12,726 nt of DNA. Source: a bacterium (lineage in GTDB: Bacteria; Babelota; Babeliae; Babelales; RVW-14). Made by a program: the position numbers and the translations under genes. The notes beneath the pieces are model-generated. The model saw nothing but the letters and a program-made list of their open reading frames with translations, was not told the origin of the DNA and did no database searches. The stretch is taken from positions 1,997 through 14,722 of the forward strand of contig JAHFBS010000004.1 in the NCBI GenBank assembly GCA_023249895.1, written 5' to 3'. This document shows, one piece after another, positions 1 through 12,467 of the stretch (position 1 is the stretch's first letter; every line of letters starts with the position of its first letter).

Positions 1-1
1 A

Positions 2-88
2 GAAGATAACTACGCCCTGGGCGATGTGAGCATTGCTGATCCAAAAAATATTATTGATCAACCTGAGGGGGCAACGCTGGAGTCGTAA
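2..88 (+). CDS. 3' end of a plus-strand gene (partial, unknown product)
   Basis: An open frame enters from the left edge and runs 28 codons to a TAA at 86-88. It is the only plus-strand frame without an early stop here, and it reads as an ordinary acidic protein tail, starting EDNYALGDVSIADPKN and ending in EGATLES. Its last 38 bases overlap the tail of the convergent minus-strand gene whose stop codon is at 51-53. The fragment is too short to assign a family. It could also be a chance open frame, so confidence is modest. Confidence 0.4.
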   Translation, partial: EDNYALGDVSIADPKNIIDQPEGATLES

Positions 89-953
89 GCTCTTTTGAAA
101 TAACCGGATCTTTATGGAGGAAGGTGAGCTGCTTATAAAGCTCGGCACTCTTTGGATTGGGTGCGATGGAGCTTGAGAGCGGTTTACCTTCTTCTTTTTG
201 ATGGAGGTTTTGTAAATCAGCGGTTACCAAGTTGCCAATTAAAATGCGTTCCATGCGTTCAATAAAACTATCCAAAACATGGTGAACAACCGTATCAATT
301 TCATCTTGAGCAAGAGAATCTTTTTTGCGTTTTGTCATGATCGTAGTAATTTTGTCCAAAATGATGCTTTGTGCGTGTGAATATTCTGCTTTTAATTCAT
401 CAGGGATTAGGCCAGGATGCATTTTGTGTTGAGAGAAGAGAGCCATTATTGATGCGTAAGCATGATCCCATATTTTGCAGAAAATTTCTTGTGAAAAGTC
501 TGCTGGAACAAGATCTTGGAGCGCTGTTTTAAAAATAAGATCGAGTGTTCTTTTGCTAACGGCTGGAAAATTGTTGTCTTCAAGACTTTTTTGAAGAAGA
601 TTGCAAACATTGCCGAGCGTTATATTGATTTTCCTGCGTTGTTCTTCTGAAATTTTTTCCAGCGATGCCGATCGATGTCGTGTGATAAATTTTTTGGCGT
701 ACGGAATAATATTAACGCTGGGCAAAAAAGTATTTTCATCAGAGGTGCCGGCGATGGACCGAGTTGTTACAATATCGTCATCCTCTTGTTCTTTGGTTGG
801 TTCGTTTACAAAAAAATCAGTATCGATATTTCCGGTAAAAATATCTTGTTTAATCTCGTAATCAGCGTCTTCAATAATGACCGTTTCATGCGTAGCAAAT
901 GCTGCGATGGGTAATATGCAGAGGGTAAAAAGACTGCAGGCAAAAAATTTCAT
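51..953 (-). CDS. Secreted protein of unknown function (300 aa)
   Basis: I do not recognise the family. The start is placed at the ATG at 953-951, because an AAAGGA ribosome binding site lies just before it; a TTG five codons upstream would swallow that site. The protein begins with a clear signal peptide (basic MKFF, a hydrophobic stretch to about residue 18, cleavage likely at AFA|THE), so the mature protein should be periplasmic or exported. About 50 acidic, probably disordered residues follow, then a largely helical body, and a Pro-rich tail (LTTPALPPQVDQ). No catalytic motif, repeat or membrane segment is visible after the signal peptide. It is the last gene of the five-gene minus-strand run, only 15 bases after the barrel-protein stop, so it is probably co-transcribed with it and may act with it in the periplasm. 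That partnership is inference from position only. Confidence 0.8.
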   Translation of the reverse strand: MKFFACSLFTLCILPIAAFATHETVIIEDADYEIKQDIFTGNIDTDFFVNEPTKEQEDDDIVTTRSIAGTSDENTFLPSVNIIPYAKKFITRHRSASLEKISEEQRRKINITLGNVCNLLQKSLEDNNFPAVSKRTLDLIFKTALQDLVPADFSQEIFCKIWDHAYASIMALFSQHKMHPGLIPDELKAEYSHAQSIILDKITTIMTKRKKDSLAQDEIDTVVHHVLDSFIERMERILIGNLVTADLQNLHQKEEGKPLSSSIAPNPKSAELYKQLTFLHKDPVISKELTTPALPPQVDQ

Positions 954-968
954 GAAGTTTCCTTTCAA

Positions 969-3446
969 TTAAAAGCGGTAGTCAAGTCCGGTAACAAAGG
1001 CGAAGGCGACTTGATGCCCAAGGCTATCGTAGTGGAGATAACCGTGACTATCGATACGACGTGTCAGAACGTTTGGTTGTCCATCAAGATCTTTGTACAG
1101 TCTGCCCGGGAAGAATAAGACAAGTTTGGTGTTCCAGTCACAGTGGTTAAGAATTTTATATACCGCGCGAAGATCAAATTCGGTACCAATCATGCGATGA
1201 GCGCGCTCTGTTGATTCCCAACCCTGAAATTTGGTTGGAATGCCATTAGGCAAGGTATTTCTGAATCGCGCAATTTGTTTTTCAATTGTTGGATCGGGAT
1301 ATTTTCCGTATTTATCCCATTTGCGCAAAGTTGCAGCTTCCCATAACCAGGTGATATCAGCAGTAAATGAAAGCGTTTCACGTTCTTTTTTGTAAGGATA
1401 CCAGGTTAACCCGAGTCCAATGTATTGCAGGTTGCTCAGATCTTTGACGTCGTTAAAAGCGTACATGGTTTGATAGGCAATATTGAGAGGACGCGGAATG
1501 ACTAGTCGATCAAAAATTAAATAGTTTTTTACCCCAAGTCCGCGATAACGCGAGCGCATCGGGACAAAGCCATTAAAGTATTTATCAACTTCATCATTAT
1601 ACGGATAATTATCGCCGGAAATATAACCAAGTGCGCCAGCAACTTTGAACGGATGATCTTCAAATTCGTAGCAGAGATCAAACATCGCCAAAAAGCCTTG
1701 ATAGGTAAGTTTGTAAGGATTGCGGAAACGATGGTTGCCAAAAGTATCTGAGTTAATAGCCCCGACCCCTCGTCCTGTACTTACAATAACGACTGGTGTG
1801 GCGTCATCATTTTCAACAATATTTTGATCCTGCTGTGTAAGCTCTCGGTTATTTCGTGTGCGCACAAGATAGGACATTTGATTTTGCGGCTCAAAAACAT
1901 TGTTGTCCGGTGCTGGAATTGGTAAAGCGTTTACATTTTGTATACGTTTTATTGGCGTCGCAGAATTTACTATAGCGGTTGATCCACTAAACCGTTTATT
2001 AAGAACATGACTAAATTGTGATTCTACGTAGCCAAAATTATTTATTGCTACTTGCTCAATATTGCGATCGATGGCGTGCATGCGTTGCCGTCCGGTTTGT
2101 CCTGCAACTTCAAGGTTGGCGCTCCATCCTTTATGGTGCCAATCTGCCATAACGCCAAGGGTAAAGAGCTTTGAACTTGAATCAGCAGACATTTCAATTT
2201 TTTGCTCAGGAGCATCGACATAAACTGCGTATTGTTCGAGCAGGAGATTTCCAAAGTCATTATAATGACGATTGAAATTAAGTTTCTGAACCCAGGTGTT
2301 GCGATTTTTTCCGCTTCCGCGTTCTGGGGGACCGTAAAGGCGTGATTGGCGATCAGGTTTGAGGTTGTCGGCAAGAGAAGAACTTGTTTCTTTCCATAAA
2401 TTGTAATAAAGATCGAGGCTCATATCTTTGGTACCGCTGACGCGCAGTAAAATTCCTGGTGGCATAAAGGGAAACCGCGTAAAACCACCTTCGCCGGCCC
2501 ATCCAAGATATTCAACTGCCAAATCATCATGATGGCCCAAAACAACGCCGCGACCAACAATATAAGGAAAGTAGCCGACTTTAAGAAATGTTGGTCGATC
2601 TTGAAACCGCTTACTAAAGACATCGAAATTTAATTTAAACCACGCTTGTTCAACAAAAATGAGCGGAAGGAGCGGCTTAACTTTAACATCACGAGCAACG
2701 ACCATATTATCGAGCTCAGGTATTGCAATTTGATCGATAGTAAATGGTGCGTATTGTGCTTCGTCATTCCAAAAAACATAGTTAGTAAGTCGAATGCACG
2801 CTTGTGACGCAGGGGCTTTGTATTTTTTGGTTCCTTGGGTGAGGGCAATATCTAAATTAAGTTTGTGGCGGATGAAATTGTTTTGGTCATGATAATCACT
2901 GCGCAGGGTGTAGACGCTATCATAAATAAACAGATCATCTTTAAGCTCGCCGCCAAAATAAAGTTCAATATCGTTAGGTCCTGAAAGTTGTAATTGTGAC
3001 ATTTCCTCAAGACAGGGTTCAGTACCTTCGTTTGGTTTCCACCACTTCAATACCCACCACGGTTGCGTGGCAACTCCTTTATCGATGTGAGGGCCAGTTT
3101 CATCGGGCGCTAAATCTTCTGAGGGCTTACCTTCGGGAATTTCTTGATCTACATCAGCACATAATTTAGTGCGATTAATTGTTGGCGTAATTTGTTCGAT
3201 TCCCTGGTCTTGGTCTGGTTCAAGTAGATCAGGCGGTGTATCGCTATGCGCGATAATGACCTCATTGTTTTTATCCGGTACGGGGGTGTCAATAAGCGCT
3301 GTTGTGGCATCTTCATCATCGACCATTAATTTTTCGACGTCGATGTTAGCATCAGTTTCATCGCCTTCTTGGTATTGCAATGCACCGGAAAGCGTTGAAA
3401 AGATGCTGCAGATGCCGAGCATCAAAGCATAGATATTTTTTTTCAT
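969..3446 (-). CDS. Putative outer-membrane beta-barrel protein (825 aa)
   Basis: The ATG at 3446-3444 has a strong AAGGAG ribosome binding site about 7 bases upstream. Residues 1-22 form a signal peptide (MKKN, hydrophobic core, cleavage near LSGA|LQ). Residues about 24-125 are very rich in Asp and Glu and probably disordered. A Trp-rich patch follows (WWVLKWW, about 130-136). From about residue 155 to the end the sequence alternates polar and aromatic/hydrophobic residues in short strand-like stretches, with many Tyr, Trp and Asn. The chain ends FVTGLDYRF, and a C-terminal Phe is the usual signature of BAM-assembled barrels. The size and pattern suggest a porin- or alginate-export-like barrel, but I cannot name a family. 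It lies 21 bases downstream of the phosphoesterase-like gene and 15 bases before the small secreted gene. The expected role is passage or binding of a substrate at the outer membrane; the substrate is unknown. Confidence 0.75.
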   Translation of the reverse strand: MKKNIYALMLGICSIFSTLSGALQYQEGDETDANIDVEKLMVDDEDATTALIDTPVPDKNNEVIIAHSDTPPDLLEPDQDQGIEQITPTINRTKLCADVDQEIPEGKPSEDLAPDETGPHIDKGVATQPWWVLKWWKPNEGTEPCLEEMSQLQLSGPNDIELYFGGELKDDLFIYDSVYTLRSDYHDQNNFIRHKLNLDIALTQGTKKYKAPASQACIRLTNYVFWNDEAQYAPFTIDQIAIPELDNMVVARDVKVKPLLPLIFVEQAWFKLNFDVFSKRFQDRPTFLKVGYFPYIVGRGVVLGHHDDLAVEYLGWAGEGGFTRFPFMPPGILLRVSGTKDMSLDLYYNLWKETSSSLADNLKPDRQSRLYGPPERGSGKNRNTWVQKLNFNRHYNDFGNLLLEQYAVYVDAPEQKIEMSADSSSKLFTLGVMADWHHKGWSANLEVAGQTGRQRMHAIDRNIEQVAINNFGYVESQFSHVLNKRFSGSTAIVNSATPIKRIQNVNALPIPAPDNNVFEPQNQMSYLVRTRNNRELTQQDQNIVENDDATPVVIVSTGRGVGAINSDTFGNHRFRNPYKLTYQGFLAMFDLCYEFEDHPFKVAGALGYISGDNYPYNDEVDKYFNGFVPMRSRYRGLGVKNYLIFDRLVIPRPLNIAYQTMYAFNDVKDLSNLQYIGLGLTWYPYKKERETLSFTADITWLWEAATLRKWDKYGKYPDPTIEKQIARFRNTLPNGIPTKFQGWESTERAHRMIGTEFDLRAVYKILNHCDWNTKLVLFFPGRLYKDLDGQPNVLTRRIDSHGYLHYDSLGHQVAFAFVTGLDYRF

Positions 3447-3467
3447 GCGACCTCTCCTTTTTTAGAT

Positions 3468-4850
3468 TTATAAGGGCTCAAAGGCGGGCTCAAGTGGTCC
3501 TCGTTGAGGAGCCGCTGGCTTTGATGCAGGTTCTTGTGGGGCGGCTGCTTTTTGTTCTTGTTGCGGTAATTCTTTATAGACTTCAGGTTGTTGTTGGGCC
3601 GTACGGGTTCCTTCGGCTGTTCCTGAAATAAGATATAACGTCGATGAGCTAAATTCTTTATGCTCTAAAACATTGCGGTTATAAAGAGTAATTTTCCAAT
3701 CATCAAAGTGCGATGCGGGGGTTAGGATAACAAAAGCATCGTAGACAAACTTAAGCGCTTTTTGATACACCGGAGTTGGGCATGAAAGCACGGTCCAAGC
3801 AGTTGATCCAAGGTCGGATGGTAAGAGCCTTAGTCCTTGGTGTGGTTGGAATGTTTCACGTTTCTTTTCGCCTTTAAAAATGACCTTGATATCGATTGGT
3901 TGTCCTGTTTGTTCGCCTTGCGTTTCGGTTAGTTGCAAGCACGTAATTTTTTTATCAGTTTTGGCGGTAAGAAATTTGGCAAAAAAGTACTCGGTGAGCA
4001 ATTTGTTTTGTCCGCGTCCAGAATCTGAGATGCGAACGAACTCTTGGGGCGTTTTGGTTGGTTCACTAATATAAATAGCGAGCGGTAACGTATTAAAGAA
4101 ACGATTAACTTGGTGAGCAAGCGGAATTTCTTCTGATGAAAGATGTGATGCTCGAACTTGTAGTTCTGTCTTAAGGCTATGTTCTTGCCAGTAATTTGCC
4201 GTCTCATGATTACCTTTAAGATAGAGCATGTTGTCAGGATTTGCTTGCATAATGCGCATGACAAGACTGAGCGTTTCCATTGAGTAGGGCGAGCGACTTA
4301 TCACATCACCCATTAAAATAATGTAGTAATCTGATGAAGTGACTTTAAATGATGTATCAATAATGCCGAGCTCTTTAAGCTTTACAAGGTCGCGTACGAA
4401 TGAATGAAATGCGCCCTGAAGATTGCCGAAAATAACAATTTTTGATTGGAGTGTTGGAGAAATCTTACATACAAAATTTTCTTTATACCCTTTTTCCTCA
4501 CGGAGCTTACTTACCTCATTAAGTTGTTGTTGAAAAAATTCTGGTGTCCACGCAGGATGGTGATGCAACCCAAGCGTGGCAAGAACCCATAAAAACTTTG
4601 TTGAGATGTTTGTTTTCCAATTTGGAACGAGTGTTTTGTAATAGTTGTTAAATTGAGGTTTGATCGTGTCATCAGTATCGGGTTTAATTGTTTCATCAGT
4701 TGATGTGGCATAAGCAATTGCGGTATCAAGTGTTTGAAAACCGGTCTTGTATGAAGGTTGTGGTAGAAAAACAACTATAGTGCTTACAAGAGCACCGATG
4801 CTCAAACCGATAACAAGTGTTTGATGATGTGATATAAAAGATTTCTTCAT
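3468..4850 (-). CDS. Membrane-anchored PPP-type metallophosphoesterase-like protein, possibly inactive (460 aa)
   Basis: I start at the ATG at 4850-4848, which has a GAGGAT ribosome binding site. The longer frame from 4928 would add 26 residues and overlap the upstream channel gene. Residues about 10-30 form one hydrophobic segment that can serve as a signal anchor, which places the domain in the periplasm. The calcineurin/PPP fold is suggested by three blocks in the right order: GNLQG (142-146), where the family has GDxHG; GDVISRSPYS (181-190), where it has GDxxDRGPYS; and GNHE (213-216), fully kept. The first-block Asp and His metal ligands are therefore replaced by Asn and Gln, so a normal two-metal centre is unlikely. 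The last 45 or so residues are rich in Gln, Pro and Ala and look disordered. The gene lies 32 bases after the channel gene and 17 bases of non-coding DNA or so before the barrel gene. It may be a pseudophosphatase that binds a phosphorylated ligand. The fold call is fairly sure, the function is not. Confidence 0.75.
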   Translation of the reverse strand: MKKSFISHHQTLVIGLSIGALVSTIVVFLPQPSYKTGFQTLDTAIAYATSTDETIKPDTDDTIKPQFNNYYKTLVPNWKTNISTKFLWVLATLGLHHHPAWTPEFFQQQLNEVSKLREEKGYKENFVCKISPTLQSKIVIFGNLQGAFHSFVRDLVKLKELGIIDTSFKVTSSDYYIILMGDVISRSPYSMETLSLVMRIMQANPDNMLYLKGNHETANYWQEHSLKTELQVRASHLSSEEIPLAHQVNRFFNTLPLAIYISEPTKTPQEFVRISDSGRGQNKLLTEYFFAKFLTAKTDKKITCLQLTETQGEQTGQPIDIKVIFKGEKKRETFQPHQGLRLLPSDLGSTAWTVLSCPTPVYQKALKFVYDAFVILTPASHFDDWKITLYNRNVLEHKEFSSSTLYLISGTAEGTRTAQQQPEVYKELPQQEQKAAAPQEPASKPAAPQRGPLEPAFEPL

Positions 4851-4882
4851 TACTATCCTCGCCGCATAAAAAGCGTAGGTAA

Positions 4883-5986
4883 CTATATGAGGAGAATATA
4901 GGTTGTACCTAGTACAAGCAAGAAACACATGAGGATAAACAGGATGCTTGAAAGTTTTTCGAGTTTAATAAGTGCAAGCGCATGTCCATGAGGATGCTCT
5001 TCGACAATGGTCATGTAACGTCGAACCGTCAAAATCTGAACGGTGAAGACAACAAATGAAAACAGCAGAAGGAAAAGGAATATAGTATCAGCAAGGGTTG
5101 AATATCCAACGGTTGGCATCATTTGTTCGATAACAAAACGATACGTGAGAAGAGCGGTGATGGCAGATGCTGTTAACGTGAACATGCTAAAGGTATTAGC
5201 AAGACCGGTAATAAATGAGAGCAATGAAAGTATTGATGCTGAAAATAAGGGAATGAAAATAATAAGTGCTTTGCGTGAACTCGTTTTAACAAGATTAAGC
5301 GCAAAAAGTGCCTTAGGATTTTCGGTTTTTTTGGTGGCGTCTTGCTGGTCAAATTGGAGCGGCAAATATCCTGCGTTAACAAACAGGTCTTTAATCCCCC
5401 ATCCGGCGGGCAAAACATTGTTTTGTATCTGGAAGCCCGATGCATCAACCGCATAAATCATCTCATGTGGTGTCACAAAATCGTTTGAAATTACAATTGA
5501 TAGTTGGTGGTTCTCAAGGGGAAAATGATGAAAGCCAAGATTAGTATTTAGTTCAAAAAGTACATTGTATTTAGCAAAGATAAGTCCGTTCTCTGAAATT
5601 TTAATATCGGGCGGACTTTTGCTCAAAATTTTACCGTTATCAATGGAAAATTTTTCAAGTGTATCAAGCGTGATTTCATCACCATTAAATTCAAACCAGA
5701 TAACTGAATCAATTTTAAAATTATTCTTTTCGATATTGAAAATAGGAATATCGCGTATAAACATACCGACTTTAACGCGGACTGAAAAAGGGCCAAGCTT
5801 TTCGAGTTCCTTGGTGGTGAGCGCTTTGAGTTGTGGAATGGTATCAGTAACGTTGGGACGATAGGAATTGATACGGAATGCAAGCGGCAGATATGTTATG
5901 ACGACTAAGATCATTAAGACTTTAAAGTGTACGGTATGAAAATTAAAAAATTTTTTTAAGTAAATGAGTAGATGTGTTGTGTTCAT
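4883..5986 (-). CDS. Pentameric ligand-gated ion channel (Cys-loop receptor superfamily, prokaryotic type; 367 aa)
   Basis: The layout is that of GLIC/ELIC-type channels. Residues 19-37 are a hydrophobic signal or signal anchor. Residues about 60-235 form the extracellular beta-sandwich: VRVKVGMFIRDI (69-80) followed by IDSVIWFEF (92-100) matches the beta1-beta2 region, and FHHFPLENHQLSIVI (152-166) matches the FPFDxQ loop that stands in for the animal Cys-loop. Four membrane helices follow: M1 about 238-261 with its conserved Pro246, M2 about 264-287, the M2-M3 linker MMPTVGYSTLAD (289-300) matching the family's LPxxxYxTxxD pattern, M3 about 301-321, and M4 about 345-366. The expected product is a homopentamer in the inner membrane that passes ions when a ligand binds on the periplasmic side. 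No acidic residue is seen at the inner mouth of M2, where cation-selective members carry Glu, so selectivity is open. The ATG overlaps the TGA of the upstream binding-protein gene (ATGA, 5983-5986), which implies coupled translation. Confidence 0.85.
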   Translation of the reverse strand: MNTTHLLIYLKKFFNFHTVHFKVLMILVVITYLPLAFRINSYRPNVTDTIPQLKALTTKELEKLGPFSVRVKVGMFIRDIPIFNIEKNNFKIDSVIWFEFNGDEITLDTLEKFSIDNGKILSKSPPDIKISENGLIFAKYNVLFELNTNLGFHHFPLENHQLSIVISNDFVTPHEMIYAVDASGFQIQNNVLPAGWGIKDLFVNAGYLPLQFDQQDATKKTENPKALFALNLVKTSSRKALIIFIPLFSASILSLLSFITGLANTFSMFTLTASAITALLTYRFVIEQMMPTVGYSTLADTIFLFLLLFSFVVFTVQILTVRRYMTIVEEHPHGHALALIKLEKLSSILFILMCFLLVLGTTYILLI

Positions 5987-7212
5987 AAGTTACCATCTTT
6001 TTTTGTGGCCAAGATCCATTCTTTTTCGTGACCTGTGTTGAGCCAAACGTTAGATGAAAGCGTTCGTGTAGAGGCATCAAATTTAAGCTCAATACCTTTA
6101 AATTTTACGTGTCCTAATTTTTCAATAGTTTGAAGAAGTGCATCGGTTGTCCAGGGGATTTTTGTTGTCTTGGCAAATTCCACAAGCAATGCCGCATTGA
6201 TATATCCTTCAAATGAATAAGGTGCTGGGGGACGGTTGGGAGAAAATTTTTCGAGGTCTTTACGATATTCTTCTGCAATGGCAAGTTTGCTGCGTTTAGG
6301 ATCAGGTACCACCGATGAGGTAATGATTTCTATGCCGCGAGATTCTTTAATTGTTTCTTGAATAGGAATTAATGATGAAAGTCCCAGTATCACGGTTTTG
6401 AAGAGTCCTTTATTAATGATTTGTTGAATAAAGTGATACGCAGGACGAGCCTGTGCAATACAAAGAATGGCATTAGGAGAACTTATCGATATTTCATCTA
6501 CCGCTCGTGAAATATTGAGTGTTTGTTGTGGATAAGAGGTTTGGGCTATAAGGGGAAGCTGATAACGATCAAGAACTCTTTTGAGCGCCTCAAGCACCGC
6601 TTCTCCCCAGTCACTTGCTTCATAGAAAATGGCGATCTTTTTTCGTTGTAAAACATTGGCGCTGTAGTTAACAAGTGCATCGACTTCCTGTTCATAGCTT
6701 GCTCTGAAAAAAATTGCATTTCGTGTGTCTTGATTGCGATGCGCTGATGATCCTTCGACGGGAAAGAGTGCTAATATTTTGTCCTCATGAAGCGTTGGCA
6801 AAAGTGTTGCGATAGTATCAGTTCCAAAAAGACTAATAAAAAGTGGCGATTTACTTGATTTGGTAAGAATGCGTACGTTTTTGTGTACTTCTTCCATGTC
6901 GGAATGATCATCGCGTACGTTGAGACGAAAAAGAAAAGGGAATTGTGGATCTTGCCGTATCTTGTTGAACATTAAATTCATCCCCTCAAAAATCTGATTT
7001 CCCATGACCGAGAGTTCGCCAGAAAGAGGGAGCGTTGAACAAAGTTGAACTTCTTGACGATTTTCGGTGGCAACTGAAGGAATGATGGTTGCCGTTTCAT
7101 GGAGGGTCTGCTTGAGCAGTGTTGCCGGTTTGTGCTTCCAGAAAATTACCATGCTCGTACCACTTACGATGCCGATAAGACCAACGATAAAAAGTATCTT
7201 TTTAGTATCCAT
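5983..7212 (-). CDS. Membrane-tethered type I periplasmic binding protein (Leu/Ile/Val-binding-like; 409 aa)
   Basis: The family is Peripla_BP_6/LivJ-like. The N-terminal block LPLSGELSVMGNQIFEG resembles the usual start of the fold, and LFGTDTIATLLP, AIFYEASDWGEA and SFEGYINAALLVEF resemble its later ligand-binding and core segments. In these proteins two lobes close on an amino acid or similar small molecule. Residues about 4-25 are one hydrophobic segment with no lipobox Cys, so it is probably anchored in the inner membrane with the lobes in the periplasm. I chose the ATG at 7212-7210, with a weak GGAT upstream; a TTG at 7221 is the alternative. No ABC-transporter permease or ATPase gene is nearby. 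Instead the gene overlaps the ion-channel gene by 4 bases. Fusions of PBP-I domains to bacterial ligand-gated channels are known, so this is best read as a sensor subunit for the channel rather than a transporter component; that role is inference. Confidence 0.85.
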   Translation of the reverse strand: MDTKKILFIVGLIGIVSGTSMVIFWKHKPATLLKQTLHETATIIPSVATENRQEVQLCSTLPLSGELSVMGNQIFEGMNLMFNKIRQDPQFPFLFRLNVRDDHSDMEEVHKNVRILTKSSKSPLFISLFGTDTIATLLPTLHEDKILALFPVEGSSAHRNQDTRNAIFFRASYEQEVDALVNYSANVLQRKKIAIFYEASDWGEAVLEALKRVLDRYQLPLIAQTSYPQQTLNISRAVDEISISSPNAILCIAQARPAYHFIQQIINKGLFKTVILGLSSLIPIQETIKESRGIEIITSSVVPDPKRSKLAIAEEYRKDLEKFSPNRPPAPYSFEGYINAALLVEFAKTTKIPWTTDALLQTIEKLGHVKFKGIELKFDASTRTLSSNVWLNTGHEKEWILATKKDGNL

Positions 7213-7315
7213 GGTATCCAACTATAGGTAGTTACATGACTTACAAAAAATAACCTTAATCCCTGGTAAGATGACCTTTCGGTGTTTGATAAGTCAACAT
7301 TTTTAAAAGAGTGTT

Positions 7316-7470
7316 TTAGGATGCGAGCTTAATGGCGTTAATGAGCTTCTGTGCCATTGGAAAGGGACTGTCTTTTTTGCAAGCAGATCATTACCAAAAA
7401 TAATAAAGATACGGCATTGATTTCTATCATGTTTATTGAAAATGGTAGGATTTAGCGATGTTTTTGGGGC
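7316..7470 (-). pseudogene. Frameshifted remnant of a small ORF (low confidence)
   Basis: On the minus strand one frame, open from 7470, reads RIFIIFGNDLLAKK. After a run of six A residues (7378-7373) a second frame continues as KDSPFPMAQKLINAIKLAS and stops at 7318-7316. Adding one A to the run joins the two into a single sensible protein stretch. No ATG, GTG or TTG starts the first part in frame, so even with the fix the gene would be incomplete. The pattern FGNDLL followed by DSPFP faintly resembles the N-terminal motif of hydrogenase-maturation-protease-like proteins, but the match is too short to claim a family. It could also be chance. Confidence 0.25.
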
Positions 7471-7487
7471 CTATTGAACCCGAGTTA

Positions 7488-7529
7488 TTTTCTGATACAA
7501 TCGAGCCCCTGTCTGATTGTATCAGAAAA
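7488..7529. repeat. 15-bp perfect inverted repeat upstream of the M48 gene
   Basis: TTTTCTGATACAATC (7488-7502) is exactly reverse-complemented at 7515-7529, with a 12-base spacer (7503-7514). The flanks run T-stem-A rather than stem-T, so it does not look like an intrinsic terminator on either strand. It ends one base before the TATTAT box at 7531-7536 and 50 bases before the M48 start, a position suited to an operator. A hairpin left by a mobile element is the alternative. Confidence 0.7.
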
Positions 7530-7578
7530 ATATTATCAAAAGCTGATGTTCATTAAAACACATTGTTAGAAAGAAAAT

Positions 7579-8265
7579 ATGAAAAAATATACAAAGTTTT
7601 TGATACTTGCGTTACTCATGGGTTTTTGTAATGCAAATTTGCCCCAAGAGACTGAGCGTAAAATTTATCAAGAATGCATGGCGCTTAAAAATTCCTCGCG
7701 TAACGCTATTCAAGAATTAGTGGCAATTTTGGGATTTTTATTAGTAACAAAAGAAAAGTGTCCGACGCTTTATAAGCTTGTTGAGGAATGTGCAACAAAA
7801 TTAAAGACGCCGGTTCCGCCGTTGGTGGTAATTTTTCAAGGCAATCTTCTTACAAGAATCCTAGAAGAACTTTCAATTTTAGATCTTAGATGTAATGCGG
7901 GAACGAGATCGCTGAGCCCATCTTTATCGATGTTTCAAATTGGTGAAGACCTTATTACCGACATGATTAATAAAAATGGCATGAAGGCTGATCAGCTTAA
8001 AGCTGTTATTGCGCATGAATTGGGGCATGTTAAGCGAAATCATTTTCTTAAGATCTTAATTATAGTGGCAGTTGTTTATATTGGAACAGCGATAATTTCT
8101 AAATATATGCCGCAAGCTCCCAACGTGAAAGAGATCCATTATCGCTTTGAGTACTTAGGAGGGCTCGTTAACCTCAATCCAATTTTGATATTATCTGAGG
8201 CTGCTTTTTTAATTGCTAGTTTGGTTTTTGTACAAATGTTTTTAAAGAGCGAAGCGAAAATCTAG
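7579..8265 (+). pseudogene. M48 zinc metalloprotease, N-terminal part, cut off by an IS200-type insertion
   Basis: The frame encodes 228 residues. Residues 1-19 look like a signal peptide or signal anchor (MKKYTKFLILALLMGFCNA). HELGH at 146-150, in the context AVIAHELGHVKRNH, is the M48 (HtpX/Ste24-like) zinc-binding helix with its catalytic Glu. Membrane segments follow at about 158-175 and 201-221. An intact M48 protein needs a third zinc ligand, the Glu of a later ExxAD motif. Here the frame leaves the gene after about Phe221 (8241) and reads seven codons of insertion sequence (LKSEAKI) to a TAG. The missing part, with the ExxAD motif, lies in the same frame at 8803-9030 beyond the element. 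Joined, the two give about 296 residues, the usual HtpX size. The truncated product should be inactive. The ribosome binding site is weak (GAAAGAAA). Confidence 0.85.
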
Positions 8266-8278
8266 GGAGCTTGCTCCC
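8265..8278 (+). repeat. Left-end hairpin of the IS200-type element
   Basis: GGGAG (8265-8269) pairs with CTCCC (8274-8278) around a CTTG loop. It lies about 20 bases inside the inferred left end, as expected for the subterminal hairpins that Y1 transposases recognise. The right-end hairpin has the same loop. The first G is also the last base of the TAG that ends the truncated M48 frame. Confidence 0.65.
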
Positions 8279-8291
8279 GAGCTGGATAGCT

Positions 8292-8317
8292 TTATAATGA
8301 GCGCAAGCTCATTATAA
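8292..8317 (+). promoter_or_regulatory. Hairpin next to the transposase ribosome binding site
   Basis: An 11-bp perfect stem (8292-8302 with 8307-8317) is closed by a GCAA tetraloop, a stable GNRA type. The AAGGA ribosome binding site at 8316-8320 begins inside the stem. IS200 itself is known to limit transposase translation by a leader hairpin over the ribosome binding site, so a similar brake is likely here. That this copy does so is inference. Confidence 0.6.
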
Positions 8318-8331
8318 GGAAAAAATAGCTC

Positions 8332-8775
8332 GTGGAACTCACTAGAAATTCGCATCATGTATTTCGAATTGTCTATCATTTCGTATGGATTCCAAAATAT
8401 CGTCATAAAGTCTTTACAGAGCCATATCGTAAAGGGATGAAGGATATTATTTATAAGATAGGGTATGACTACAACATAGAGATTCTAGAGCTTGAAATCC
8501 CAAAAGATCATATTCATATGGTCGTAAGATCAGCGCCGAAGATATGTCCGTCATGGATTATGCAAGTTATAAAAAGCATATCCGCGAGAAACTTTTTCAA
8601 GCTATATCCTGAGATCAAGAAAAAATATTTTTGGGGAGGGGCGTTGTGGACGCAAAGTTTTTTTGTGGAAACAATAGGAAATGCGAATGAGGAAGTAATT
8701 TGCAAATACGTGCAAAACCAACTTAGGGAAATGGATATTCAGGAAGAAAGAGCAAAGCAGCTCAGAGTATTCTGA
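8332..8775 (+). CDS. tnpA: IS200/IS605-family Y1 (HUH) transposase TnpA (147 aa)
   Basis: The protein is a single Y1-transposase domain of normal family length. The N-terminal block YHFVWIPKYR (15-24) is typical of IS200 transposases. HIH at 60-62 is the HUH metal-binding pair, and Tyr126 in KYVQNQ is the nucleophile that attacks single-stranded DNA at the element ends. No stop, frameshift or missing key residue is seen, so it could be active. The start is a GTG with AAGGA 11 bases upstream, a weak arrangement that fits the low expression usual for IS200. The gene sits inside the element that splits the M48 peptidase gene, on the same strand as its host gene. Confidence 0.92.
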   Translation: MELTRNSHHVFRIVYHFVWIPKYRHKVFTEPYRKGMKDIIYKIGYDYNIEILELEIPKDHIHMVVRSAPKICPSWIMQVIKSISARNFFKLYPEIKKKYFWGGALWTQSFFVETIGNANEEVICKYVQNQLREMDIQEERAKQLRVF

Positions 8776-11821: not shown

Positions 11822-12106
11822 GTGAATTGGAAAGTTACTATCAAACGAAGTATTCTCAAAGAAATTAAAAAATTGCCGATTGATGTTGCTGACAAAATGG
11901 GAGCATTGGTTCGAGAAATTGAGTCGTTTGGCCCGTTACGATACAACTGGAAAAATTTCAGCAAGTTAAAGGGCCGTGGAGATTGTTATCATTGTCATAT
12001 CAAATCAGGACGACCTACTTTTGTTGTGTGTTGGGAAGTTACAGATAAAGAAATTAGAATTATTGAGGTGTATTATGCCGGGACGCATGAGAACGCACCA
12101 TACTGA
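11822..12106 (+). CDS. RelE/HigB-family mRNA-interferase toxin (94 aa)
   Basis: This small basic protein has the RelE/ParE-superfamily layout: an N-terminal beta strand and two helices (WKVTIKRSILKEIKKLP), a middle strand region (FSKLKGRGDCYHCHI) and a C-terminal strand pair (PTFVVCWEV, then IRIIEVYYAGTHENAPY). RelE/HigB toxins cut mRNA on the ribosome and stop growth until neutralised by their antitoxin. The exact catalytic residues vary in this family and I cannot fix them here. The start is a GTG with AAGG about 10 bases upstream. The gene is first in a two-gene operon and its end overlaps the antitoxin gene by 32 bases. A toxin-first order is typical of HigBA-like pairs. Confidence 0.85.
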   Translation: MNWKVTIKRSILKEIKKLPIDVADKMGALVREIESFGPLRYNWKNFSKLKGRGDCYHCHIKSGRPTFVVCWEVTDKEIRIIEVYYAGTHENAPY

Positions 12107-12467
12107 TAGTACAATTAATGTTATTATCCTAGATAAGAACAAGGCGTATAAAAAGTTTATTATATCTCGTAGCGAAGAGCCTAAGCTTCTTACACTTCTG
12201 CGTAATATTGCTCAGAATGATGACGCTGAGGATTATGTTACCGTCGATGAGGCTTTTAAACACGTTTATCAAAAACACGGGAAAATTGGCTCGACCCTTC
12301 GAGGCTTTCGTTTTCGTGATGAACTAACACAAGTTGAACTTGCGCGTCGTCTTGGCATTCGCCAGGCGCATCTTTCGGCAATGGAACACGGAAAAAGGAC
12401 AGTCGGTAAGGCGCTGGCTAAAAAATTAGCTAAGATTTTTAATACCGACTATCGTTTGTTCCTGTAA
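12075..12467 (+). CDS. Xre-family helix-turn-helix antitoxin (130 aa)
   Basis: I chose the ATG at 12075 because GAGGTG lies just before it. The open frame extends back to 11976, but that part overlaps the toxin gene and has no ribosome binding site; another ATG at 12087 is possible. Residues about 78-128 are a Cro/C1-type HTH: FRDELTQVELARRLGIRQAH with LSAMEHGKRTVGKALAKKLA after it. Residues 1-75 have no motif I recognise and probably wrap the toxin. The protein should neutralise the upstream RelE/HigB toxin by direct binding and repress the operon at the palindrome in its promoter. It ends 42 bases before the CCA end of the convergent tRNA gene. Confidence 0.88.
   Translation: MPGRMRTHHTDSTINVIILDKNKAYKKFIISRSEEPKLLTLLRNIAQNDDAEDYVTVDEAFKHVYQKHGKIGSTLRGFRFRDELTQVELARRLGIRQAHLSAMEHGKRTVGKALAKKLAKIFNTDYRLFL

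What the first reader, a model, noticed from the sequence alone, without database searches (positions are those of the whole stretch)
4883..7212. Two-gene receptor: a periplasmic binding protein translationally coupled to a pentameric ligand-gated ion channel
Seen: a PBP-I (LivJ-like) gene whose TGA overlaps the ATG of a Cys-loop-superfamily channel gene (ATGA at 5983-5986). The binding protein has an N-terminal membrane segment, no lipobox, and no ABC transporter genes beside it. Known: bacterial pLGICs have been reported fused to PBP-I, Cache and other sensor domains, and in predicted operons with PBP-II genes. Inference: here the PBP-I sensor is a separate, membrane-tethered subunit that docks on the channel and gates or tunes it. 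That would be a bacterial amino-acid-type receptor made of two chains, parallel in logic to the PBP-like amino-terminal domains of animal glutamate receptors.
Basis: partly seen in the sequence, partly recalled or inferred. Interest (0 to 1): 0.85.

Follow-up and report, generated by a model that had tools for sequence, protein, structure and literature searches.

The report
Three-part bacterial channel receptor module
A bacterium from a group of protist parasites carries, side by side, a ligand-binding protein, a relative of animal nerve-receptor channels and a phosphatase-like protein with a broken active site, a set that recurs in many members of its phylum and looks like an undescribed multi-part sensor channel.

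Summary
In detail: a Peripla_BP_6 (PBP-I) gene (7212-5983, -) overlaps by ATGA a pentameric ligand-gated ion channel (pLGIC) gene (5986-4883). The channel misses Pfam's Neur_chan models but matches GLIC by sequence and predicted fold. The genome is Dependentiae (Babelota/TM6). In two sets of loci from this phylum, 87 of 106 channels adjoin a PBP-I and/or this pseudophosphatase. The two are often fused, with 1-4 PBP-I domains; no channel is fused to either. Channel and PBP divergence correlates across 48 pairs (r=0.59; no within-genome swap of 2000 reaches it). PBP presence follows the channel (29 of 32 channel-positive, 0 of 17 channel-negative genomes), not LivH/M permeases. I read it as a multi-chain envelope receptor: Venus-flytrap sensor, pseudophosphatase adaptor, pLGIC. 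Complex and gating are inferred, not shown. My searches of an open-licence library found no description. New variant of prokaryotic pLGICs with accessory sensors.

The parts
5983..7212 (-). PBP-I (Peripla_BP_6, LivJ-like) sensor protein, 409 aa, N-terminal hydrophobic segment, no lipobox
   Evidence: PF13458 4e-27; 3lop 2e-23
4883..5986 (-). pentameric ligand-gated ion channel (pLGIC) subunit, 367 aa: N-terminal helix (probable TM), beta-sandwich ECD, four TM helices
5983..5986 (-). ATGA overlap of PBP stop and channel start (translational coupling is inferred)
5861..5932 (-). extra N-terminal hydrophobic helix of the channel (residues 19-42)
5156..5158 (-). M2 pore position 9' (Thr277; Thr in 42 of 44 rows of A1)
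   Evidence: prime numbering set from the GLIC alignment
3468..4850 (-). PPP/calcineurin-fold pseudophosphatase (MPE), 460 aa from its ATG, N-terminal hydrophobic segment, Pro/Ala/Gln-rich C-tail
   Evidence: PF00149 3e-6; family profile to PP2A 3e-8
4413..4427 (-). MPE motif I: GNLQG in place of GDxHG
4296..4310 (-). MPE motif II: GDVIS in place of GDxxD
4203..4214 (-). MPE motif III: GNHE, retained here
969..3446 (-). protein with a partial match to Alginate_exp (PF13372 4e-7), probably an outer-membrane barrel; likely same operon by spacing; found beside 8 set-1 modules, all in the window's own family
51..953 (-). probably secreted protein of unknown function, last gene of the likely operon; relatives in 4 set-1 loci including this one

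Best explanation
A multi-chain envelope receptor. A small solute reaches the periplasm (in this family perhaps through the outer-membrane barrel encoded next) and closes the PBP-I Venus flytrap. The PPP-fold pseudophosphatase, held to the inner membrane by its N-terminal segment, acts as a non-catalytic adaptor between the PBP and the periplasmic domain of the pLGIC. Flytrap closure biases the pentamer towards open or closed and so changes ion flow across the inner membrane. Shown here: the genes, their order, recurrence, fusions, correlated divergence and the broken metal site. Inferred: the complex, the adaptor role, the gating, the membrane topology.
For: 87 of 106 channels adjoin a PBP and/or MPE on the same strand (50 of 62 in set 1; 37 of 44 in set 2, 38 loci of 31 further genomes). 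By genome: 29 of 32 and 26 of 31. MPE lies directly downstream of 69 of 106 channels; of these 69, 22 overlap the channel gene and 41 start within 0-30 nt. MPE and PBP are fused in one chain in many genomes. The AF2 model of one natural fusion has pLDDT 89.9 and pTM 0.86, which suggests a defined MPE-PBP arrangement. Distances of 48 channel-PBP pairs correlate (r=0.59); swapping PBPs among paralogues of one genome (17 genomes with more than one pair) gives mean 0.20, maximum 0.57, and 0 of 2000 reach the observed value. PBP occurs in 29 of 32 channel-positive and 0 of 17 channel-negative genomes, with no association with LivH/M permeases (Fisher p=0.77). All six metal ligands are intact in 0 of 36 module MPEs against 16 of 20 unlinked paralogues.
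Against: No physical contact, ligand or current has been shown. Genetic linkage alone can make divergence agree, and nearest neighbours of channel and PBP in other genomes agree in only 21 of 48 pairs. 19 of 106 channels have no detected partner; two of these run off contig ends. A clade of 12 channels, 11 of them labelled PBP-CH, shows no MPE (one of these, L084, runs off its contig), so the adaptor is not always needed. No channel is fused to PBP or MPE in any of 106 cases. Fused chains show a strong hydrophobic 19-mer before the MPE domain in only 14 of 50 (the test sees only residues before the domain hit), so their membrane anchoring is unproven. Pore position 9' is Thr and acidic residues at -1'/-2' are absent, so gate and selectivity are uncertain. 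PBP segments near the presumed pocket vary between paralogues.
Confidence: 0.57

Rival explanations
1. The PBP does not gate the channel allosterically but concentrates or hands over a ligand that then binds the channel's own extracellular site; the pseudophosphatase only scaffolds.
For: Tasneem et al. proposed this for fused or operonic binding proteins (PMC549065, passages seen). Fits separate chains and the absence of channel fusions.
Against: Correlated divergence of each pair and the MPE-PBP fusions suggest a lasting partnership, though they do not exclude hand-over.
Confidence: 0.2
2. Binding-protein-dependent uptake: the PBP feeds solutes into the pLGIC pore, which has become a solute channel in a metabolically poor, host-dependent bacterium.
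For: Pore 9' is Thr, not a hydrophobic residue, and there is no acidic residue at -1' or -2' in 44 of 44 rows. The own genome (79% complete) shows no LivH/M permease.
Against: The pLGIC fold is kept and Phe at 16' is in 43 of 44. pLGIC pores are not known to pass amino acids (recalled).
Confidence: 0.1
3. The PBP is an ordinary LivJ-type substrate-binding protein for an ABC importer; the channel is a chance neighbour.
For: Where sources name the fusions, they write ABC transporter or branched-chain amino acid substrate-binding protein. 12 of 29 PBP-positive genomes do hold a PF02653 permease somewhere.
Against: Phylum-wide adjacency to the channel; PBP tracks the channel, not the permease. The likely true LivJ of G001 (C4) lies about 1.5 kb from two permease genes and is only a weak match (E 1.5e-4).
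Confidence: 0.02
4. The MPE is an active ecto-phosphatase that makes or destroys the ligand sensed by the PBP.
For: PF00149 match; some members keep 4-5 of the 6 ligands, and one of 68 database relatives (P0101) keeps all six.
Against: 0 of 36 module MPEs keep all six; in the window Asp and His of motif I and the second Asp of motif II are replaced.
Confidence: 0.05

Closest known systems
PBP-I-pLGIC fusions of alphaproteobacteria (PMC549065, passages seen)
   Same: A PBP-I sensor domain goes with a bacterial pLGIC.
   Different: There one chain with an N-terminal PBP-I; here separate chains (0 of 106 fused), with a pseudophosphatase that can be fused to 1-4 PBP-I domains.
pLGIC genes in predicted operons with stand-alone PBP-II or Cache genes (same paper)
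   Same: Sensor encoded as a separate gene beside the channel.
   Different: PBP-I not PBP-II; three or more components; spread through many genomes of a phylum and in several paralogues.
DeCLIC and its N-terminal domain (PMC12664993, passages seen)
   Same: Extra periplasmic domains on a bacterial pLGIC; DeCLIC appears among the structural matches.
   Different: DeCLIC's extra domains are on the same chain and are described as two lobes like other regulatory regions, not as PBP-I or PPP fold.
GLIC (Gloeobacter proton-gated channel)
   Same: Nearest solved channel by sequence.
   Different: GLIC has no known partner proteins (recalled); here an extra N-terminal helix, Thr at 9', Phe at 16', no acidic residue at -2'.
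Animal ionotropic and metabotropic glutamate receptors (PBP-I-like domains)
   Same: A Venus-flytrap domain drives a membrane receptor; the PBP half of the fused model aligns to mGlu ligand domains.
   Different: Analogy only; a different channel superfamily, and single chains (recalled).

Membership tests
pLGIC / Pro-loop receptor | beta-sandwich extracellular domain followed by four TM helices | tested here: met
   AF2 model pLDDT 84.5; Foldseek to GLIC, GluCl, GABA-A, glycine receptor and DeCLIC at E about 1e-16 to 2e-15, TM about 0.6
pLGIC / Pro-loop receptor | sequence homology to a proven pLGIC | tested here: met
   GLIC by phmmer E=5e-7; profile A4 E=5e-17; profile A1 gave none at E<=1e-12
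pLGIC / Pro-loop receptor | Pro-loop proline and M1 proline | tested here: met
   P156 and P246 in 44 of 44 rows of A1
pLGIC / Pro-loop receptor | match to Pfam Neur_chan_LBD or Neur_chan_memb | tested here: inconclusive
   window protein: none at E<=1; 10 of 44 members of A1 match PF02932 at E<=0.01
pLGIC / Pro-loop receptor | pentamer that conducts ions when a ligand binds | not testable with these tools
   needs electrophysiology and structure
PBP-I (Peripla_BP_6) | profile match and two-lobed fold | tested here: met
ABC importer substrate-binding protein (LivJ) | works with LivH/LivM permeases encoded nearby | tested here: not met
   own genome 0 PF02653 hits; 19 of 49 genomes have PF02653, no association with the PBP
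PPP/calcineurin-like phosphatase | Metallophos fold | tested here: met
   by sequence profiles: PF00149 3e-6; PP2A 3e-8 with profile A3. Not tested by fold comparison (one search was filled by PBPs)
PPP/calcineurin-like phosphatase | metal ligands D-x-H, GD-x-x-D, GNH | tested here: not met
   0 of 36 module members intact; 16 of 20 unlinked paralogues intact
PBP-I-pLGIC fusion receptor (as in PMC549065) | PBP-I and pLGIC in one chain | tested here: not met
   0 of 106 channel ORFs carry a PBP or MPE domain

The most novel reading that the evidence does not exclude
A bacterial phylum of host-dependent bacteria runs a diversified family of multi-subunit, neurotransmitter-receptor-like channels in which Venus-flytrap PBPs (one to four per chain) drive a Cys-loop-type pore through a catalytically dead PPP-phosphatase adaptor. 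The adaptor's Pro/Ala/Lys-rich tail may link the receptor to the cell wall or an outer-membrane barrel, making a trans-envelope ligand-gated ion pathway.
Probability: 0.3. Interest if true: 0.88.

Novelty: new variant of a known kind. Interest (0 to 1): 0.74.

Why it matters
Bacterial pLGICs have been structural models for animal receptors while their natural partners and roles stayed obscure. Here is a phylum where the sensor, a putative adaptor and the channel are separate, recurrently adjacent genes in several paralogues, so how an accessory ligand-binding domain drives a pLGIC becomes testable by mixing chains. If the adaptor role holds, it would add a pseudophosphatase to the parts from which receptors are built, and give Dependentiae, known mainly from metagenomes and a few parasites of protists, a candidate way to sense a host.

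Tried and rejected
ABC-transporter reading: rejected. Active phosphatase reading: mostly rejected; against me, one of 68 database relatives (P0101) keeps all six residues, and so does one of 50 in the second set of loci (L150:8274-10151, on the opposite strand to the module there, probably an unlinked paralogue). Channel fused to sensor: looked for, none in 106. Pfam Neur_chan_LBD in the own genome: no hit, but no control genome rang either, so this says nothing. Profile A1 against PDB at E<=1e-12: none; profile A4 succeeded. The structural comparison of the fused MPE.PBP model was filled by PBPs, so the MPE half was not tested by fold. Shared ligand of the PBPs: segments near the presumed pocket differ between paralogues, and no ligand is named. 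Promoter and terminator scan of 1-8300: 16 promoter-like sites (shuffles 21.4) and 7 terminator-like sites (shuffles 8.7), one of the latter inside the MPE gene on its strand, so the operon rests on spacing alone. Neighbour families of the channels without MPE were only glanced at.

Limits: the 49 and 101 genomes are related, not independent samples, so the Fisher p values are only descriptive. The 20 unlinked phosphatase paralogues were picked by hand from the better-scoring unlinked rows, with one row each from G002 and G000 added; they are not random. In the first motif count four short module MPE fragments and the duplicate of the window were dropped, and five short ones in the second set; the 68 database relatives overlap the locus sets. 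Of the 63 channel matches, G026:C17 (fetched as L104) gave no channel ORF; of the new matches, G057:C11 (a short piece at a contig start) was not fetched. One channel fragment (L120) was left out of the tree. Label PBP-CH in set 1 includes L073, whose MPE lies about 1.1 kb downstream behind another gene, and L084 and L087, which run off their contigs. The search that found the fusions started from a fused chain and so favours chains of 416 aa and more.
Full report
Observation. The two ORFs lie as described: PBP 7212-5983 and channel 5986-4883 on the minus strand, sharing ATGA. The PBP matches Peripla_BP_6 at 4e-27 and the Ralstonia PBP 3lop at 2e-23. However phmmer aligns it to GLIC at 5e-7 over residues 125-355, a 29-row family profile reaches 5e-17 (the 44-row profile A1 gave nothing at 1e-12), 10 of 44 members of A1 match Neur_chan_memb, and the AlphaFold2 model (pLDDT 84.5) matches pLGICs by Foldseek with TM-scores of about 0.6. 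Pro-loop and M1 prolines are invariant in 44 rows. The channel also has a hydrophobic helix before the ECD (residues 19-42).

Whose genome. Close relatives that bear a name are Candidatus Babeliales, Dependentiae or TM6 in nearly every case. The own genome is a 0.91 Mb assembly, 79% complete, with three channel matches. The channel occurs in 32 of 49 genomes of the relatives search and 63 of 101 of the phylum search, G000 counted in both.

A third partner. Directly downstream of the channel lies a Metallophos gene (4850-3468; PF00149 3e-6). Around relatives' channels the same three components return. In one large group PBP and phosphatase-like domain are one chain, with the channel as a rule upstream. 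A search with the phosphatase half of one such chain gave 68 database proteins, 49 of them also bearing PF13458. Of 54 fused non-edge chains, 47 have 1 PBP domain, 4 have 2, 2 have 3, and 1 has 4. At what looks like one place in the chromosome (neighbour families f1, f3, f4, f5, f11; a member of f1 is a prolyl-tRNA synthetase) either arrangement can sit, and genome G033 has both in a row.

Counts. Set 1 (55 loci of 32 genomes, fetched around channel or PBP hits): 62 channels; PBP-CH-MPE 19, PBP-CH 13, CH-MPE.PBP 16, CH-MPE 2, no partner 12. Set 2 (38 loci of 31 genomes not in set 1): 44 channels; CH-MPE.PBP 29, CH-MPE 6, with a separate PBP 2, none 7. Together 87 of 106 have a partner; by genome 29 of 32 and 26 of 31. 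MPE follows the channel directly in 69 of 106, and 63 of these 69 overlap it or start within 30 nt. No channel is fused to either partner. Of 54 PBP ORFs in set 1, 8 are not the direct neighbour of a channel; these include fragments, members of MPE.PBP arrays and the likely LivJ of G001.

Correlated divergence. Architecture labels cluster on the channel tree (15 changes, shuffled mean 34.0) and on the PBP tree (5 changes, shuffled mean 22.6). Distances of 48 pairs correlate at r=0.59; exchange of PBPs among paralogues within genomes gives mean 0.20, maximum 0.57, and 0 of 2000 reach the observed value. Physical linkage can cause this by itself, so it shows lasting partnership, not contact. Nearest neighbours agreed in only 21 of 48. 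PBP presence: 29 of 32 channel-positive, 0 of 17 channel-negative genomes (Fisher 2e-10, genomes not independent). LivH/M permease PF02653: none in the own genome, 19 of 49 genomes, 12 of 29 PBP-positive and 7 of 20 PBP-negative genomes (p=0.77). The weak PBP hit in G001:C4 lies near two permease genes and is probably the true LivJ.

The phosphatase-like protein looks like a pseudoenzyme. Its profile is closest in the PDB to PP2A/calcineurin-type PPP phosphatases. In the window motif I is GNLQG, motif II GDVIS, motif III GNHE. All six ligands D,H,D,D,N,H are intact in 0 of 36 module members but in 16 of 20 unlinked paralogues of these genomes. In wider sets 1 of 50 and 1 of 68 are intact. Conserved instead are N204, E216, W352 and S356 (36 of 36), W221 (35 of 36) and H149 (33 of 36), as would suit a binding or structural surface (inference). 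Of 23 stand-alone set-1 MPE ORFs, fragments included, 13 end in tails of 50-343 residues of which 46-84% are P, A, K, Q, E or T, as would suit a protein that reaches into the cell wall (inference).

N-termini. A hydrophobic 19-mer precedes the domain in 24 of 32 stand-alone PBPs and 26 of 30 stand-alone MPEs, but only 14 of 50 fused chains; lipobox-like strings occur in 0 of 32, 0 of 30 and 4 of 50. The test sees only residues before the domain hit and says little where that stretch is short. The channels' value (6 of 92) is uninformative for that reason.

Fold of the fusion. The model of P0046 (757 aa, a relative, not the window's protein) has pLDDT 89.9 and pTM 0.86; its PBP half aligns to Leu/Ile/Val-type binding proteins and to mGlu and taste-receptor ligand domains. 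The high pTM suggests a fixed MPE-PBP arrangement (inference; no PAE seen).

Pore. Aligned to GLIC, M2 has Thr at 9' (42 of 44), Phe at 16' (43 of 44), Glu at 19' (42 of 44), Lys/Arg at 0' (31 of 44; Met in the window), and no acidic residue at -1' or -2' in any row. Selectivity cannot be named.

Mechanism and standing. Best reading: a Venus-flytrap PBP senses a solute and, through a pseudophosphatase adaptor, acts on a pLGIC. Shown: gene content, order, recurrence, fusion, correlated divergence, broken active site. Inferred: complex, gating, ions, ligand, topology, and the role of the barrel-like protein (969-3446) and of the last protein (51-953). Relatives of these two were found in 8 and 4 set-1 loci, all in the window's own family; the barrel profile found none in set 2.

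Known work. The 2004 survey reported PBP-I fused to pLGICs, and stand-alone PBP-II or Cache genes in predicted operons (PMC549065, passages). The 2016 evolution paper (PMC4795631, passages; no mention of PBP, operon or TM6) and the DeCLIC paper (PMC12664993, passages) do not describe this set in the passages seen. Searches: pLGIC with periplasmic binding protein, prokaryotic and operon (0 papers); two of prokaryotic LGIC, periplasmic binding protein, Cys-loop (64 papers, 15 listings seen); Dependentiae with ligand-gated ion channel; pLGIC with phosphoesterase and periplasmic binding; TM6/Dependentiae with ion channel (24 papers, 10 listings seen); pLGIC with accessory-domain terms (308 papers, 10 listings seen); pLGIC with PBP-I terms; Babela with ion channel (1 listing, an amoeba-symbiont paper). 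None that I saw reports it; the library holds open-licence papers only. The Chromulinavorax genome paper (PMC6561590, passages) does not contain the word ligand-gated.

Verdict. Observation confirmed; interpretation partly supported and enlarged: a new variant of prokaryotic pLGICs with accessory sensors, built of three or more chains.

Noticed in passing
L107 (G029), 3328-7524 and 9242-14869: Single chains with a pseudophosphatase domain and three or four tandem PBP-I domains (1399 and 1876 aa; the third of the shorter one is partial), each next to a channel.
   Followed up: partly
L107, L068, L076 (G029, G038, G046): Channels with an N-terminal extension of about 215-230 residues rich in hydrophobic stretches (probably multi-TM); the one scanned (L107:14890-16557) had no Pfam match over cut-off.
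   Followed up: partly
L116:7121-11671, L106:7251-9242, L074:5767-7578 (G035, G028, G044): Channels with long Lys/Arg-rich N-terminal extensions of 264 to 1176 residues; no Pfam match in any of the three.
   Followed up: partly
relatives, e.g. G004 with 11 matches: Dependentiae genomes carry many PPP-type metallophosphoesterases outside the module; 16 of the 20 examined keep all six metal ligands.
   Followed up: partly
L069 (G041:C9) 803-3972: Three tandem channel genes with no detected PBP or MPE.
   Followed up: no
L094:2447-3835, L109:5042-6316, L097:10244-11617, L113:8487-9917: Proteins near fused-type channels that look, by eye, like outer-membrane barrels; no Pfam match in the three scanned.
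   Followed up: partly
L088 (G008) 5537-7466: Between a channel and a PBP lie a gene with a weak TPR match and a gene with HINT and Ntox35 domains (polymorphic-toxin-like).
   Followed up: no
window 7579-8775: A short M48 peptidase gene (PF01435, 4e-8) followed by an IS200-type transposase (PF01797, 4e-39).
   Followed up: no
window 11822-12467: Overlapping small gene with a YafQ-like match below cut-off and an HTH_3 gene: perhaps a toxin-antitoxin pair.
   Followed up: no
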